Source: a virus | Virus record (IMG/VR): IMGVR_UViG_3300023109_003600 | Coordinates: 57,650-121,649 of that record | Reading direction: 5' to 3' (one strand) | DNA length: 64,000 nt | Part shown: positions 3 to 61,039 of the stretch, one piece after another | Position numbering within the stretch: position 1 is the first letter of the stretch | Layout of the letters: each line of letters begins with the position of its first letter | Notes under the pieces: generated by a model | Seen by the model: the letters and a program-made list of their open reading frames with translations, nothing else | What the model was told of the DNA's origin: nothing | The model's database searches: none | Program-made: the position numbers and the translations under genes

Positions 3-1355
3 GAAGGAGATCCAAATAAATCTAGAAGATTAAGGGATGCATCACGATCAGTGCAAGACATCCTACAAACAGGATTAGATAGTTTAGGTTCGGGAAAAAT
101 TAATTTACCGAAAGATTATCAATATGATAATGCGAAACCAAATGAGCAACTATCAGGCAAAACTATTTTTGGATTAGATGTAGAGATTAAAACTAAAGCT
201 CCAGAATCAGGCACTAGAGAAATCTACGCCAACTGGTTAGCTTCAGAATCTAACCCTAGATTTACAGCGGTAATAGTTAATAGACTATGGAAGGAAGTTT
301 TTGGGTTGGCATTAATTGAGCCGCTAGATAATATGTTTGATGACACGATACCTACAGATATAAAACTACAGCTACACCTCGAAAAAGTTATGATTGCCTT
401 AAATTATGATTTAAAAGAATTTTTAAGAATATTATATAATACAAAAACTTTTCAGAGAGCTTCTGTTATTAGAGATGTTATACCGCGAGATGAAAAAGAT
501 ACAGTCATGCCTATAGAAGTAAAGTGGATTATAGCGGGGCCAAATACTGAAAAGCAATCTCAAAATGCTGTACCATTCTTCTACCAAGGGCCTTTAGTTG
601 AAAGGATGAGTGGCGAACAAATTTGGGACTCTTTAGTTAATTTAACTTTTAATAATATAGATTCAAGAAAATTACAGCAGAACACAAAAGGATATGAAGA
701 CTTCGATAGATTCTCAAGCATGACTGGAGAAGAGCTTTTTGAAAATATTATGAATAAACTCAACAACAAAGAAAATGCAGGGTCAAAAATAGCGACAAAA
801 TTTACAGAACCTATTAATACAGAATGCCCTATAAAACCAGGCAGGGAAATCGACCCAACCTTATTAGCCTTAAATGAAGATGGTCAGACAGTAGCGTTTT
901 GTTGTGAATCTTGCCTAGACAAATTCAAATCTCAAAAGAAACAAAAAAAAGATGACTACAAACAAAACTACACTAAGGACAGGAATTCAGTCAGGGCGTC
1001 CGAACTAAGCTCTCCAGCACCCATAGGGCACCTCATAAGGGAGTTTGGCGGCTCAGACAGAGAACAGATAGAAAACTCGCACAAACAAGCTTCAGCAACC
1101 CAAGTACTTAATTTATTAAATGGTTTTGTAGAAACAAGGTTATTAAAAAACAAAAATTCAGAGATAGTAAAGCAAATCAAATCACAAAAAAATTTAGAAG
1201 ACAAAATTAAAGTTGCGTTCAAATCAATCCTAAATAGAGAAGCTTCAATATCAGAATTAAAATTATTTAAATCGTCACTTAAACAGGGTAAAGAGGTATA
1301 TAAAGAGATAGTATGGACGCTGGTAAACAGTCACGAATTTATATTTATTAAATAA
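3..1355 (+). CDS. DUF1553-family surface protein with inserted TRASH/YHS-like motif (5' end outside window)
   Basis: The reading frame is open to the left edge, so the N-terminal part (usually DUF1549 and often a cytochrome-like region) lies outside. The visible part matches the DUF1553 (PSD1) family: ANWLASESNPRFTAVIVNRL near the start, then ERMSGEQIWDSL, and in the last third RASELSSPAPIGHLIREFGG and a closing NSHEFIFIK. Between the two DUF1553 halves sits a Cys motif (CPIKPG, then FCCESCLDKF, nt ~821-925) resembling a TRASH/YHS metal-binding domain. The family is abundant in Planctomycetes and Verrucomicrobia, of unsettled function, and usually paired with DUF1501, as here 12 bases downstream. 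Family call is firm; viral ownership is inference. Confidence 0.85.
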   Translation, partial: EGDPNKSRRLRDASRSVQDILQTGLDSLGSGKINLPKDYQYDNAKPNEQLSGKTIFGLDVEIKTKAPESGTREIYANWLASESNPRFTAVIVNRLWKEVFGLALIEPLDNMFDDTIPTDIKLQLHLEKVMIALNYDLKEFLRILYNTKTFQRASVIRDVIPRDEKDTVMPIEVKWIIAGPNTEKQSQNAVPFFYQGPLVERMSGEQIWDSLVNLTFNNIDSRKLQQNTKGYEDFDRFSSMTGEELFENIMNKLNNKENAGSKIATKFTEPINTECPIKPGREIDPTLLALNEDGQTVAFCCESCLDKFKSQKKQKKDDYKQNYTKDRNSVRASELSSPAPIGHLIREFGGSDREQIENSHKQASATQVLNLLNGFVETRLLKNKNSEIVKQIKSQKNLEDKIKVAFKSILNREASISELKLFKSSLKQGKEVYKEIVWTLVNSHEFIFIK

Positions 1356-1367
1356 AAAAAAAGAAAA

Positions 1368-2651
1368 ATGAACATAAACGAATTAGGAAGAAGAGAATTT
1401 ATAGCTCAAGCAGCAAAAAGTTGCTTGGGAGTAGGCTTGATGCCAATGGCAGGAGCTTATATACATAATAGCGTCGAGGCACTACAGCCAGGAGTTAGAC
1501 CAGCAACAGCCCGTCATGTTATATATTTAAATATGGCAGGAGCAATGTCACACCTAGACACCTTTGGTCCAAAACCAGAAGTCCCAGATATTCAAGGTCC
1601 GACAAAATCAATCGCAACTACAGCAGATGGAATTCTATTATCGGAAAACTTACCGAATACTGCGCAGTTTATGCATAAAGCTTCCGTCATTAAAACTATG
1701 GTATCTAGCCAGGGAGCGCACGAACAAGCTAGCTATCTCATGCACACTAGCTATCTCAAGAGAGGTACAATTGTTCATCCTACTTTTGGAAGTTGGGTTT
1801 CAAAGCTGGCAGGCTCAATCAATACTACCGTACCTGCAAATATTAAAATTGGAGGTGGAGGAGGAGGAGCTGGTTTTCTTGAATCAAAATATGGTGCTCT
1901 GCCAATAAATAATCCTCGCTCTGGTTTGGCTAATAGTAAAATGGCTTCTTATTTAGATTTAGAAACCTTTCAAGGCAGAATTTCTTTGGCAGAGAAATTA
2001 AATCAAAACTTTTCTACAGATTTTCAATTAAAACAAGTAAGAGCTTATTCTGATTTATACAGGGATGCAGTTAAGCTAATGAATAGCGATGACTTAAATG
2101 CTTTTGATATAACTAAAGAGTCGCAGCAAACAAGCGAACTTTATGGTGCTACTAATTTTGGGCAAGGTTGCCTTTTAGCAAGAAGGTTAGTTGAAAATGG
2201 CGTTCGTTACGTTGAAGTTACAAGAGGTGGATGGGATACGCATGATAATAACTTTGAAAGAGTTGCGGCAAATTGCGCGGATATTGATCAAGCTTTAAGC
2301 GGTTTGCTTTACGATTTAGATAGACGAGGACTTTTAAGCGAAACGCTTGTAGTGTTGACTTCTGAATTTGGAAGGACTCCAAACATCAACGGTAGAGACG
2401 GAAGAGATCATTGGCCATATTGCTTTACGGCTTTTATGGCGGGAGGAGGAATCAAAGAAGGCTTCTCTTACGGAGAAAGTGACAAGGCAGGTCGAAGCCC
2501 AGTGGAAGGAAAAGGCATTAAGCCAGAAGACTTAAATGCTACTATAGCATACGCCTTAGGGTTGTCAATAAATAGTCAGCAGTACTCCCCCTCAGGAAGA
2601 CCTTTTACGATAGCGAATAAGGGAGAACCTTTACTTGACGTTATTTCTTAA
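1368..2651 (+). CDS. DUF1501 family protein with Tat-type signal
   Basis: The 427-residue product starts with a twin-arginine-like signal (GRREFIAQAAKSCLGVGL, residues ~7-24), which suggests folded export across the inner membrane. The body carries DUF1501 landmarks: AGAMSHLDTFGPKPEV, QGAHEQASYLMHTSY, a glycine run GGGGGGAGF, RGGWDTHDNNFERV and SEFGRTPNINGRDGRDHW. DUF1501 belongs to the alkaline-phosphatase/sulfatase-like superfamily and usually travels with DUF1553, as it does here. The start has no clear Shine-Dalgarno, only an A-rich run. No truncation is visible. The substrate is unknown; a role in handling sulfated or surface glycans would be speculation. Confidence 0.88.
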   Translation: MNINELGRREFIAQAAKSCLGVGLMPMAGAYIHNSVEALQPGVRPATARHVIYLNMAGAMSHLDTFGPKPEVPDIQGPTKSIATTADGILLSENLPNTAQFMHKASVIKTMVSSQGAHEQASYLMHTSYLKRGTIVHPTFGSWVSKLAGSINTTVPANIKIGGGGGGAGFLESKYGALPINNPRSGLANSKMASYLDLETFQGRISLAEKLNQNFSTDFQLKQVRAYSDLYRDAVKLMNSDDLNAFDITKESQQTSELYGATNFGQGCLLARRLVENGVRYVEVTRGGWDTHDNNFERVAANCADIDQALSGLLYDLDRRGLLSETLVVLTSEFGRTPNINGRDGRDHWPYCFTAFMAGGGIKEGFSYGESDKAGRSPVEGKGIKPEDLNATIAYALGLSINSQQYSPSGRPFTIANKGEPLLDVIS

Positions 2652-9515: not shown

Positions 9516-9757
9516 ATACTATCTATCAAGAATCAGGTTGCTGGTTTACATACGACTATGCGCATAAAAAAATATTCTTAAGCGTTGATCAGGTTAAGGC
9601 GCTCTGCCCTGCTGTAGATAAATTTACTGAAGACTCGGTAAAAAGATTCTCAAAAATTAAACTTAGTAACAATTTTCATAATTGCACTTTGATACCAACA
9701 AAAAACATAAAGGATATATATAATAGCTTGTTTAAAATAAAACAAAAAAAGTGTTGA
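9512..9757 (+). CDS. Hypothetical protein, 81 aa
   Basis: A TTG start overlapping the previous stop (TTGA) is proposed, with an alternative TTG 39 bases upstream. The product contains two Cys (SGCWFTYDY, ALCPAVDKF) and a basic helical C terminus. Its stop codon lies inside the -35 box of the RNA-region promoter. No family recognised. Confidence 0.4.
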   Translation: MNTIYQESGCWFTYDYAHKKIFLSVDQVKALCPAVDKFTEDSVKRFSKIKLSNNFHNCTLIPTKNIKDIYNSLFKIKQKKC

Positions 9758-9782
9758 CAAAACCATACTACTGATGTAATAT
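9754..9782 (+). promoter_or_regulatory. Sigma70-like promoter TTGACA-17-TAATAT driving a non-coding region
   Basis: A consensus TTGACA and TAATAT are spaced 17 bases. The predicted start is near 9789. Unlike nearly all other promoters here, no start codon follows; the next gene begins about 350 bases later. Confidence 0.65.
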
Positions 9783-9788
9783 ATATAC

Positions 9789-10130
9789 ATAATCAAAATT
9801 GAGAATCAAACTCAAGCAAATAAAATAATTGATCTTTAACATTTTAATTTGAGGTTTAACCCAATCTTGCAAGAGAAGGGAATCATCGTTTAACTGCCTA
9901 AAGTTAATCCTCAAAAAACTTTGGAAGGGCTTATAATCCTTCCTGTGGGTGACTGAAATAGCCTGTTGTGAGCGGGCTAAGGTATACAATTCTCTGTGGT
10001 AGAGTGCCAATGGACAAATGTCTGAGGCAGGGTTCCCAACCCTAATTGTAGTGCGAGTAGGAAAATTATGAACTGATGTTCACACCAAAAGTTGAGAGTA
10101 TACAGTAATCTCTCCCCACACTTATTTTTT
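9789..10130 (+). ncRNA. Candidate structured non-coding RNA (~340 nt)
   Basis: This gap has its own promoter and a series of paired segments: TTGAG 9799-9803 with CTCAA 9811-9815; TTTGAGG 9848-9854 with CCTCAAA 9909-9915, extended after one mismatch by TTAAC 9856-9860 with GTTAA 9903-9907; GGAAGG 9923-9928 with CCTTCC 9938-9943; AGCCTG 9960-9965 with CGGGCT 9973-9978; AGGGTT 10029-10034 with AACCCT 10038-10043; GAGAG 10094-10098 with CTCTC 10110-10114. TGTGGG 9944-9949 can pair with CCCACA 10115-10120 and close the 3' domain. T6 follows at 10125-10130. Base composition is richer in G than the flanks. I could not match it to tmRNA, RNase P, 6S or group I intron cores. Confidence 0.6.
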
Positions 10131-10137
10131 AAACCCC

Positions 10138-10446
10138 ATGATCTTTATAAAAAAAGACGAACAATCAAGAAACGCACTAAAACTAATTAAGCAGGTTCTA
10201 CAAGCTCATCAAGACATGTTAGAACAAAAAGAGTCTGAACTAGTATGCATTGCCTCAGAAGAAATTAAAAATGAAATTAACAGCATCCTAAAAAACAAGG
10301 CCCCGCAAGAAGAAACGTTTTCTAAAGCAGATCTAATTTCTCAAGAGATAGAAGTTATAGATATAAAGATAGCTGCTATACAATATACGTACGATTACGT
10401 AAAGTTGATGTTAAAACAATGCGAAAAATTGGAAAAGAATACATAA
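10138..10446 (+). CDS. Hypothetical helical protein, 102 aa
   Basis: The sequence is almost entirely helical with heptad-like spacing (ALKLIKQVLQAHQDMLEQKE; IDIKIAAIQYTYDYVKLML). No family recognised. It starts eight bases after the T-run ending the candidate RNA and overlaps the next gene by 28 bases. Confidence 0.5.
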   Translation: MIFIKKDEQSRNALKLIKQVLQAHQDMLEQKESELVCIASEEIKNEINSILKNKAPQEETFSKADLISQEIEVIDIKIAAIQYTYDYVKLMLKQCEKLEKNT

Positions 10447-57628: not shown

Positions 57629-59908
57629 ATGATTATTGCAAAAGAAAAAAGTAAACGAGTTGTACAAAGCCATGACTTCGAGTCAGTCAACTGCACTATT
57701 GATGCAGAAGATATGCGTTATGTTGCATCATTATTGAGAAACAATTATTCAAATCCACCTCTTGCAGTTGTAAGAGAGATTACTGCAAATGGTCTTGATG
57801 CCAACCTAGAAGCAGAATCAAGCAGACCTATTGAGGTGTCTATTCCAACCAAGTTTAGTCCAAGCTTTCGAGTGCGTGATTTTGGTGGTGGGCTATCGCA
57901 AGAAGATGTTTTTGGATTATATTCTAAGTATGGGAAATCCACCAAAAGAGATTCCAATAATTATATTGGTGCTTTTGGCATTGGTAAATTTGCCCCATTA
58001 TCTTATGGAGATAGCTTTACTTGCGTTTCGTATCATGGTGGGAATAAATCCTCTTACAATGTTTTCGTAGATGATAATGATGACACACAAATTGTAAAGT
58101 TGCACGAAGAACCAACCAATGAACCAACAGGTTTGTCGGTCGAGGTTGCTATTGCAGATTCAGATGTAAACAAATTTCGTGAGATTTGCCAAGCATTTTT
58201 TCGCTTTTTCTCTAAAAATGAAATGCCAAAATTTTTAGGTGTTGCAGATGATGAAGAATTTTTGAAAGAATTCAAGATTGCCCTCAAAGATAAGAAAGAT
58301 TCTTGGTTCATGGTTGACGATGAGCAAGATTACTATTCTCGCTCTCATGGGCAAGCTCATGCTTTTATGGGTAGAGTACATTACCCAATCAATGCCTCTT
58401 CAATCAATTTTGATGCGTACCTTGACGAAAAAGATGTCAATGCAATCAGAGAGATATGTCAACAAAGCAATCTTTATATTAGGTTTGATATTGGAGAGTT
58501 GAAATTACATCATAGTAGGGAATCTCTAGAATATAATAAGCCTACGCAAAAGGCAATTATACAAAAAATTGTATCAATTTATAAAGACATTCAAGAATTA
58601 GCTAAAGAAAAATTAGCAAATGCAGAGTGCTTGTGGGATGCGAAATCTAAGTACGCACAGGTCGTTAATGCCCTACCACACTCCTTAAAAGATGTTTTCA
58701 AAAATTGTTTTTCTTGGAATGGTAATTCTATTACCTCATCAGCTTTTTCAAGACCTTATGGTATGCACGAAAACCTTATCATTACTGAATATTCAAAAAG
58801 TAAAGACTCTAATGTTTCGGATGGTTACAAGGTCACTTCTCAAAAGTCAAGCAGAATATTAGCTTATGATTCTAGTGTGCTTGTTTATCAAGATCTGAAA
58901 AGTTCACATGGAAATGCTTTGAGAGCTAGAACATTATTCAATCAAGATGCCGATTTAAGCTCAGTTTTTATAGTTCATGCAACAGATGGAGAGGGAGAAG
59001 ATTATCTCTTCAAGCAAACAGATGGTTTTCGCCTTGACTTAATCTCAAAAGAAAACTTGTTGAATACTTCTGATGTTGAAAAAGCAAAACTGCAAGTAGG
59101 TACTAGAGCTTCGGGAGAGAGTCGTCAAAGCGTTCCAACATTTGTATTTACGGATCATGGTTATAATAATGCAGATAAATGGGCAAACGGAGAGGAGCGT
59201 TCCAATCTTGAGAAAAACCTTAAAAAGGGTGAAAAGTTAGTATATATCGCCATATCAAATTATAAGCCTTCAGATTCAGAATATAGTCTCGATGGGCTAT
59301 CTCGCCAACACAGACATCTTGAAAAATTAGTAAAAGACCTTAAAAAAGATTCTATATCAGTTCTTTATGGTGTTCGTAAAGCAGATGTTTCTAAGCTAGA
59401 CGAAGCAAAATGGATTCATTGGGATCAATACAGAACAGACTTAGCTAAACAACTTTTATTAAGCAATAAAAAAGTTTTGGCTCAATCAGAGATAGAAATG
59501 GCTTTCCTTGAGCATAGGTCAGACATGGAGCATTTTCATCAGATAGATTCTTTGATGACAAATCAATATATCTCAACCTTATTGAGTGAGCTAGATAGCG
59601 ACCATAATGTTCGCTTTGTGCATAACATTGCAAAGAAACAAGGCAAGACAGGTGAATCTAACACTCAAATGCTTTACCAACTAAAAACAATGGTAAATCA
59701 GACTGATAAGCAATGGGTGAAAGATAATTTAGGAAAACCTTATAATTGGAAATCTTTTGACAAATCTTGCAAGCAAATTACTGAAGATTATCCCTTACTA
59801 GAAGTCTTATCTCGCCACCTTTATGGTTGGCACAACATCAAGCAAAGTGGAGAAGGTGAAAAGATAATCGCTTACATTTTACAATGCGACAAACTAAAAA
59901 ACTCTTAA
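57629..59908 (+). CDS. rIIA: rIIA-like protein (GHKL ATPase domain)
   Basis: A 759-residue protein starting with a GHKL fold: N-box VREITANGLDANLE (~48-61), G1 VRDFGGGLSQEDVF (~76-89) and G2 IGAFGIGKFAPLSYG (~107-121). This is the order in rIIA of T4-like and other phages, which also has a long C-terminal part of unknown fold. It is followed by an rIIB-like gene, strengthening the call. In T4 the rII pair blocks exclusion by lambda rex; in other phages its role is unclear. Confidence 0.85.
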   Translation: MIIAKEKSKRVVQSHDFESVNCTIDAEDMRYVASLLRNNYSNPPLAVVREITANGLDANLEAESSRPIEVSIPTKFSPSFRVRDFGGGLSQEDVFGLYSKYGKSTKRDSNNYIGAFGIGKFAPLSYGDSFTCVSYHGGNKSSYNVFVDDNDDTQIVKLHEEPTNEPTGLSVEVAIADSDVNKFREICQAFFRFFSKNEMPKFLGVADDEEFLKEFKIALKDKKDSWFMVDDEQDYYSRSHGQAHAFMGRVHYPINASSINFDAYLDEKDVNAIREICQQSNLYIRFDIGELKLHHSRESLEYNKPTQKAIIQKIVSIYKDIQELAKEKLANAECLWDAKSKYAQVVNALPHSLKDVFKNCFSWNGNSITSSAFSRPYGMHENLIITEYSKSKDSNVSDGYKVTSQKSSRILAYDSSVLVYQDLKSSHGNALRARTLFNQDADLSSVFIVHATDGEGEDYLFKQTDGFRLDLISKENLLNTSDVEKAKLQVGTRASGESRQSVPTFVFTDHGYNNADKWANGEERSNLEKNLKKGEKLVYIAISNYKPSDSEYSLDGLSRQHRHLEKLVKDLKKDSISVLYGVRKADVSKLDEAKWIHWDQYRTDLAKQLLLSNKKVLAQSEIEMAFLEHRSDMEHFHQIDSLMTNQYISTLLSELDSDHNVRFVHNIAKKQGKTGESNTQMLYQLKTMVNQTDKQWVKDNLGKPYNWKSFDKSCKQITEDYPLLEVLSRHLYGWHNIKQSGEGEKIIAYILQCDKLKNS

Positions 59909-59918
59909 AAAAAAAGAG

Positions 59919-59947
59919 TTGACTTATAATAACTAATATAATACTAT
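59919..59947 (+). promoter_or_regulatory. Sigma70-like promoter TTGACT-17-TACTAT with overlapping inverted repeat
   Basis: The -10 ends six bases before the rIIB-like ATG. An inverted repeat AACTCTT 59900-59906 / AAGAGTT 59914-59920 separated by A7 overlaps the -35 and could be an operator. Confidence 0.6.
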
Positions 59948-59953
59948 ATATAA

Positions 59954-61039
59954 ATGATTGAGAAAAATAATATGAAATTACCATACAACATAAGCGAGGA
60001 TTCCATTACTATCTTTTACGATGGACAACCTCATACAATAAGAAAAGACAATGCAAACTTTCCTCATGCAAGAAAAGCTTTGATAGAAGCAAGATATGAT
60101 GATGTAGTTGGCTTGCTAGATGTGAAGAGTGCAGTAGAGAACTTTGTTCAAGGCGATATTGAAGTCAAGGACGAGGTAGTTTATTACAAAGGAAATCGTT
60201 TGCATGGAGTAGTGGTAGACAAACTGCTCTCAATGCTTCAGCAAGGAATGAAAGATTCTACTCCTCTTGTTAGTTTTATTACAAGATTGCAAGCCAATCC
60301 TTCGGCTAATTCTGTAAATGAGCTTTATTCCTTTATGGATTACAAAGAGCTTCCAAGCACTCCCGAAGGTAAAGTCTTGGGGTACAAAGGAGTTCAGCAT
60401 GACTTTTGGAGTAGCACAGGTAATGCAGATACGATTGTCGTTCAAGGCGAAACCAATGATAGGCATCAGATTCTTAATGAGGTCGGAGAAACTATCGAGG
60501 TTGCTCGCAGATGCGTAGACGACAACAAAGATCACCATTGCTCTTTTGGTCTTCATGTCGGTTCATACGATTACGCTAATCAATGGGCGGGAGAAGATGG
60601 TCGTTTATTAGTTGTAGAGTTTGATCCCTCAGACGCAGTTTCAGTACCAACTGATTGTAATTTTCAAAAATTAAGGGTCTGCAAGTACAAGGTAGTGTCT
60701 GACATTACTGATACTCGCAAAGAGCTAACCAAGCCTGTCTACGAGGCTAATAAGCCCATCTACGGATCAAACGAGATAGATTTGCATGATGACTACGATT
60801 ATGATGAAGATTTCTACGAGCAAGAAGATTGGGAATCAGATTCTCTTAACCTCTCAATTAGGAATTATATCGAGAATAAGTTAGAAGAAGGTGTCTTACC
60901 AAGTCTCAAACAAGTTCAGAGTAGGTTGAAAGGTGAAAAAATATCTTGCAGAGAAATCGCACAAGTGGCAGAAAAATTAGGTTACTTCGTTAATACAGAT
61001 GAAGATATTGCTTTTTCTCAGTCAAAAATTTCTGAATAA
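59954..61039 (+). CDS. rIIB: rIIB-like protein
   Basis: The 361-residue product has the rIIB features I know: an N-terminal strand domain (DSITIFYDGQPHTIRKDNAN), the central FITRLQANPSANSVNELYSF with MDYKELPSTPEGKVLGYKGV, and CSFGLHVGSYDYANQW followed by a strand domain. The C-terminal ~70 residues form a small helical domain (SLKQVQSRLKGEKISCREIA) typical of rIIB ends. Partner of rIIA. A second in-frame ATG follows 18 bases in. Confidence 0.82.
   Translation: MIEKNNMKLPYNISEDSITIFYDGQPHTIRKDNANFPHARKALIEARYDDVVGLLDVKSAVENFVQGDIEVKDEVVYYKGNRLHGVVVDKLLSMLQQGMKDSTPLVSFITRLQANPSANSVNELYSFMDYKELPSTPEGKVLGYKGVQHDFWSSTGNADTIVVQGETNDRHQILNEVGETIEVARRCVDDNKDHHCSFGLHVGSYDYANQWAGEDGRLLVVEFDPSDAVSVPTDCNFQKLRVCKYKVVSDITDTRKELTKPVYEANKPIYGSNEIDLHDDYDYDEDFYEQEDWESDSLNLSIRNYIENKLEEGVLPSLKQVQSRLKGEKISCREIAQVAEKLGYFVNTDEDIAFSQSKISE

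What the first reader, a model, noticed from the sequence alone, without database searches (positions are those of the whole stretch)
9754..10130. Candidate new structured RNA with its own promoter
A consensus promoter is followed by about 340 bases without a gene. Six local hairpins of five to seven pairs, a 12-pair stem with one mismatch (9848-9860 / 9903-9915) and a possible long-range closing helix (TGTGGG 9944-9949 / CCCACA 10115-10120) fit into it, and a T6 run ends it. Base composition shifts toward G. I found no match to tmRNA, RNase P, 6S, group I intron cores or T-box/riboswitch signatures.
Basis: seen in the sequence. Interest (0 to 1): 0.76.

Follow-up and report, generated by a model that had tools for sequence, protein, structure and literature searches.

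The report
Phage manA RNA with rRNA-style leader
The segment encodes a real structured RNA of an already named but unexplained class (manA), and about 60 relatives in uncultured viruses show that in this phage group it is usually a free-standing RNA gene with its own promoter, a leader like that of ribosomal RNA genes, and a terminator, rather than the gene-control switch it is catalogued as.

Summary
The structure is real: in 43 non-redundant relatives, 20 of 41 pairs show compensatory changes.

New, as far as I could find, is the gene architecture. In 58 of 62 loci of this type, a sigma70-like promoter is followed by a boxA-like element (window GATCTTTAACA; some relatives GTTCTTTAATA, a perfect match to the published gamma-proteobacterial consensus), usually behind a small hairpin, the boxB-boxA order of rRNA leaders. 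An intrinsic terminator follows in 33 of 43 loci (random windows 1.9%), and downstream genes are unrelated.

So in this lineage manA looks like a stand-alone non-coding RNA gene with an rRNA-type leader, although Rfam lists it as cis-regulatory. The window's own copy has lost the terminator, so co-transcription with the next small gene is possible. Transcription, Nus binding and function are untested.

The parts
9754..9782 (+). sigma70-like promoter TTGACA-17-TAATAT; predicted start about 9788-9792
   Evidence: conserved in 58 of 62 relatives
9799..9815 (+). 5' hairpin TTGAG-AATCAAA-CTCAA (boxB-like position)
   Evidence: 40 distinct leaders; variants TTAAG/CTTAA, TCGAG/CTCGA, CTGAG/CTCAG keep pairing; absent in L023, L161-L163, L187, L198, L208
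9831..9841 (+). boxA-like element GATCTTTAACA (10 of 11 match to GYTCTTTAANA)
   Evidence: consensus from PMC5725501
9848..9915 (+). interchangeable hairpin module; 12-pair stem 9848-9860/9903-9915
   Evidence: same module with compensatory stem changes in L161, L194, L200; absent in L023, L075 and others
9923..9943 (+). manA P1 hairpin
   Evidence: covarying helix 1 of A2
9923..10124 (+). manA RNA core (RF01745)
9944..10120 (+). closing helix TGTGGG 9944-9949 / CCCACA 10115-10120
   Evidence: cyanophage members have GGGAG/CTCCC, P-HM1 GGGTG/CACCC
9960..9978 (+). helix 4, AGCCT/GGGCT
   Evidence: 16 and 11 both-sided changes at two of its pairs
10094..10114 (+). 3' hairpin GAGAG-TATACAGTAAT-CTCTC, highly conserved loop of the family
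   Evidence: helix 9; CM alignment
10125..10130 (+). T6 run; remnant of the terminator region of relatives
   Evidence: L208 and L161 have an ACCC..GGGT hairpin + T7 here
10138..10446 (+). downstream ORF, 102 aa, unknown family; in L161, L162, L208 its homologue follows a terminator

Best explanation
9754-10130 is a phage RNA gene. Shown by sequence: a sigma70-like promoter, a leader with a small hairpin and a boxA-like element, one swappable hairpin module, and the manA core (RF01745) closed by a long-range helix; most relatives end in an intrinsic terminator. Inferred mechanism: host RNA polymerase starts the transcript; NusB-S10 binds boxA in the nascent leader and, as in rRNA operons, shields the untranslated transcript from Rho and helps it fold; the terminator releases a free structured RNA (roughly 330 nt here), and the manA core acts in trans during infection as a structural RNA or RNA-protein particle. 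The target is unknown. In the window's own copy the terminator has decayed, so transcription probably also continues into the small gene at 10138.
For: Rfam match; 50 of 50 relatives' records hold exactly one manA match, 46 above cut-off. Covariation. A model built only from window-type RNAs finds all 21 cyanophage manA RNAs tested at E of at most 2.1e-8, with no hit in 15 decoy loci. Promoter plus boxA in 58 of 62 loci; the hairpin lies upstream of boxA, the rrn order (PMC10250234). Terminator in 33 of 43 non-redundant loci against 15 of 800 random windows. Several unrelated downstream gene families; in isolated cyanophages manA also sits at unrelated places. boxA raises expression of untranslated CRISPR arrays (PMC7862264). 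manA was reported among the RNAs found in the transcriptome analysis of a Bifidobacterium megaplasmid that also makes tRNAs and tmRNA (PMC10832533).
Against: No RNA data. boxA is a short motif, the window copy has one mismatch (A at position 2), and the host and its own boxA are unknown; among the rrn leaders sampled one planctomycete has GATCTTTGAAA but none has GATCTTTAACA. The loci share ancestry and are not independent trials. The window and L023 have no terminator before the next ORF. None of 30 cyanophage manA loci has a strong hairpin terminator by the same test, and where an ORF was detected it starts 32-98 nt after the core, as behind a leader.
Confidence: 0.66

Rival explanations
1. 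Cis-acting leader (riboswitch-like, as Rfam labels manA): the folded core with its closing helix and the T-run controls read-through or translation of the next gene, here the 102 aa ORF at 10138.
For: Rfam type Cis-reg; Weinberg 2010 lists manA as a probable riboswitch (PMC2864571). In the window and L023 the ORF starts 16-18 nt after the closing helix without a terminator. Cyanophage-type manA: T-run in 23 of 24, then gp32 or another gene 32-98 nt on. A missing Shine-Dalgarno is normal in this phage (3 of 46 genes have one).
Against: Terminator between manA and the next gene in 33 of 43 relatives, including two with the window's own downstream family (L162, L208) and a weaker one in L161; the next gene often has its own promoter; unrelated downstream genes.
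Confidence: 0.2
2. Nus-factor decoy: an abundant boxA RNA titrates NusB/S10 and weakens host rRNA synthesis during infection.
For: boxA-like element in nearly all window-type loci.
Against: It gives no role to the conserved manA core, and cyanophage manA has no boxA leader.
Confidence: 0.06
3. Processive antitermination element in cis, like HK022 put or lambda nut sites: the RNA stays with RNA polymerase and helps it read downstream genes.
For: boxA and hairpins right after a promoter; diverse downstream genes.
Against: Most copies are followed within about 75 nt by a terminator and often a new promoter.
Confidence: 0.05

Closest known systems
manA RNA, RF01745 (Weinberg et al. 2010, PMC2864571)
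   Same: Core 9923-10124: P1 hairpin, closing helix, GACUGAA segment, 3' hairpin with GUAUACAGUAAUC; 77.1 bits.
   Different: Window-type members have a 5' leader with boxA and hairpin modules outside the Rfam model, and most have their own terminator; not simply a 5' UTR.
rRNA operon leader (boxB-boxA, NusB/S10/SuhB antitermination; PMC10250234, PMC5725501)
   Same: Promoter, hairpin, then boxA ahead of an untranslated structured RNA.
   Different: Phage-borne, short RNA, no rRNA; protein binding untested; window boxA is 10 of 11 to the gamma-proteobacterial consensus.
boxA leaders of CRISPR arrays (reported by Stringer et al., as cited in PMC7862264)
   Same: boxA used to express an untranslated RNA outside rRNA operons.
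   Different: No repeat array and no cas genes seen; a structured core instead.
wcaG RNA, RF01761
   Same: Marine and cyanophage RNA described together with manA.
   Different: A different family; no match here.

Membership tests
manA RNA (RF01745) | Covariance-model score above the curated cut-off | tested here: met
   77.1 bits against 55.2, full-length match 1-192
manA RNA (RF01745) | Closing helix, P1, 3' hairpin with conserved loop | tested here: met
   All present; reciprocal model R1 recovers cyanophage members
manA RNA (RF01745) | Position in a 5' UTR (Rfam type Cis-reg) | tested here: inconclusive
   ORF follows directly in the window and L023; in 33 of 43 relatives a terminator separates them
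manA RNA (RF01745) | Binds a ligand (riboswitch proposal) | not testable with these tools
   No ligand known
rrn-type boxA antitermination leader | boxA matching GYTCTTTAANA shortly after the promoter | tested here: inconclusive
   Window 10 of 11; GTTCTTTAATA (11 of 11) in 8 relatives; boxA-like in 58 of 62 (consensus). The consensus is gamma-proteobacterial; the host is unknown
rrn-type boxA antitermination leader | Hairpin (boxB) upstream of boxA | tested here: met
   9799-9815; 40 distinct leaders, three compensated stem variants; missing in some relatives
rrn-type boxA antitermination leader | Binding of NusB-S10 and protection from Rho | not testable with these tools
   Needs biochemistry
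rrn-type boxA antitermination leader | Same boxA as the host's rRNA operons | tested here: inconclusive
   Host unknown; GATCTTTGAAA in one planctomycete leader, GTTCTTTGA in Bacteroidota
tmRNA, RNase P, 6S, introns, other known riboswitches | Rfam or ARAGORN match | tested here: not met
   manA is the only Rfam match in 64 kb; ARAGORN none

The most novel reading that the evidence does not exclude
manA is not a riboswitch family but a mobile, stand-alone phage RNA gene that in one viral lineage is expressed like ribosomal RNA, through a boxB-boxA leader, with interchangeable hairpin cassettes plugged in between leader and core.
Probability: 0.55. Interest if true: 0.78.

Novelty: new variant of a known kind. 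Interest (0 to 1): 0.6.

Why it matters
manA has been listed since 2010 as a probable riboswitch with no ligand. If it is a free-standing phage RNA, the ligand hunt is aimed at the wrong thing, and the question becomes what RNA a phage needs enough to express it the way cells express ribosomal RNA. Cyanophages such as P-SSM2, P-HM1 and P-SSM4 carry manA and can be grown, so this can be tested directly. The swappable hairpin modules are a further oddity with no counterpart that I could find.

Tried and rejected
Blastn of the window segment or of two relatives against isolated phages: no manA match; only a cyanophage-type query hit isolates. Plasmids: none; the pMP7017 record is not held. Rfam matches below cut-off (sn2991, SAM-II) dropped as chance. 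The genome contigs pattern scan gave 58 loci, no more than chance would give; those I could read showed no manA. A search for the boxA stretch in 274 gamma-proteobacterial genomes found nothing near 16S, so the host stays unknown. A pseudoknot between the 5' hairpin loop and the linker is well supported in 14 relatives but not in the window, where it would have to use boxA bases. A first terminator finder limited to short loops missed clear sites and was replaced. A link to gp32 autoregulation was dropped, since gp32 follows only some cyanophage manA and none of the window type examined.

Full report
What is there. The window is part of a 121,649-base IMG/VR viral record. Rfam finds one RNA family in its 64 kb: manA, RF01745, at 9923-10124 on the + strand, 77.1 bits with a cut-off of 55.2, full model length. 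The 12-pair stem at 9848-9915 lies upstream of the Rfam model and belongs to a leader that the model does not cover.

Relatives. Pattern scans of IMG/VR gave two sets: 46 cyanophage-type manA loci (24 distinct cores), and 62 loci of the window's type counting the window itself (64 stretches found, less three chance hits, plus the window). The model search over 50 records of the second set found exactly one manA each, 46 above the cut-off. No isolated phage among 50,697 records matches the window type by blastn, whereas 41 cyanophage records match the cyanophage type. The second set was collected with a pattern that fixes TTGGA and TCCTGTGGGTGAC, so invariance of those bases is by construction.

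Structure. In 43 non-redundant cores (alignment A2) the consensus has 41 pairs; 98.6% of cells pair, 20 pairs have both-sided changes, and 185 cells show such changes against 47 in shuffles and 13-29 when the partners are slid. The closing helix does not vary in A2, partly because of the search pattern, but between subfamilies it changes on both sides: GTGGG/CCCAC here, GGGAG/CTCCC in most cyanophages, GGGTG/CACCC in P-HM1. A covariance model made only from window-type RNAs recovers all 21 cyanophage manA loci tested (28-51 bits) and none of 15 decoy loci. All cores have stops in all three + frames.

Leader. 58 of 62 loci have a TTGAC..TATAAT-like promoter followed by G[AT]TCTTT[AT]: GATCTTTAACA 26, GATCTTTTACA 12, GTTCTTTAATA 8, GATCTTTAAAA 6, others 6. 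Of the other four, L155 and L186 have GTTCTTT with a poor promoter or a contig that starts too late, L189 is cut by the contig end, and L196 lacks it. The published gamma-proteobacterial boxA consensus is GYTCTTTAANA (PMC5725501): GTTCTTTAATA fits it fully, the window's GATCTTTAACA misses one position. The order hairpin then boxA is that of rRNA leaders (PMC10250234). The hairpin keeps pairing in three changed versions; in 14 leaders its loop can pair with the linker, and the matched pairs beat all 50,000 permutations. The exact 11-mer occurs once in the 64 kb window.

Modules. Of 60 loci, 31 have nothing between boxA and P1; 29 carry inserts that fold into one or two self-closed hairpins of quite different sequence. 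The window's module recurs only in L161, L194 and L200, with compensatory stem changes (TTGAGG.TTAAC/GTTAA.CCTCAA against TTGAG.CTAGC/GCTAG.CTCAA), and is missing from its closest syntenic relative L023.

3' end and neighbours. An intrinsic terminator lies within 170 nt after manA in 33 of 43 loci, against 15 of 800 random windows of the same contigs and 0.1% of shuffles. L162 and L208, and with a weaker hairpin L161, carry the window's own downstream gene family behind the terminator; the window and L023 keep only TTTTTTAAACC. First downstream ORFs, picked crudely, fall into four recurrent families and several single ones. In isolated cyanophages manA sits after regA, pstS, gp23 or ferredoxin, or before transaldolase, each time close behind a TTGACA/TATAAT-like promoter (by eye). 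Cyanophage-type copies have no strong hairpin terminator (0 of 30) but a T-run in 23 of 24, so they may still act as leaders of gp32 and other genes.

Reading. For the window's lineage the best reading is a stand-alone RNA gene expressed with an rRNA-style boxA leader. Shown: family membership, covarying structure, conserved promoter, boxA-like motif, modules, terminators. Inferred: transcription, Nus binding, action in trans. Not known: the target. A transcriptome study of a Bifidobacterium megaplasmid reports manA among its non-coding RNAs, on a plasmid with a tRNA array and a tmRNA (PMC10832533), which fits an RNA gene. The open-access papers I could search do not describe boxA or hairpin modules with manA; supplements and subscription papers were not searched, so novelty is provisional.

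Noticed in passing
window 51-2651; L023 9630-10913: PSD1 (DUF1553) and DUF1501 genes, typical of planctomycetes and verrucomicrobia (general knowledge), inside a phage contig; L023 shares DUF1501. A hint to the host, or an auxiliary gene.
   Followed up: partly
window, 46 gene starts: Only 3 of 46 genes have a Shine-Dalgarno-like motif, so the host probably initiates translation without it.
   Followed up: partly
window 11377-48769: Long run of apparent glycosyltransferase, sulfotransferase-like and sugar-nucleotide genes, unusually many for a phage; judged by eye from the translations only.
   Followed up: no
window 57629-61039: rIIA and rIIB homologues side by side.
   Followed up: no
L265 1543-1716, L267 1508-1714, L266 1453-1629: GenBank 'hypothetical proteins' (T4-GC 428, 524) are annotated on top of manA RNA in cyanophages P-SSM4, S-SSM5 and P-HM1; probably not real proteins.
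   Followed up: partly
L177 and L183, after manA: Shared extra segment (ATTTGGACTGAAACG...GTATTGTAGCGGATTTCGTAGTCTGG) after the closing helix: possibly a 3' module.
   Followed up: no
L140 4570-4821 and 13 other loci: Small protein family (MKTLKDILSNYGYIN...) with its own promoter right after manA; no Pfam, PHROG or isolated-phage match.
   Followed up: partly
modules of L170/L171 and L172/L198: Two hairpin modules with different stems share the segment CTGAGTATCGG, as if the loop rather than the stem is what matters.
   Followed up: no
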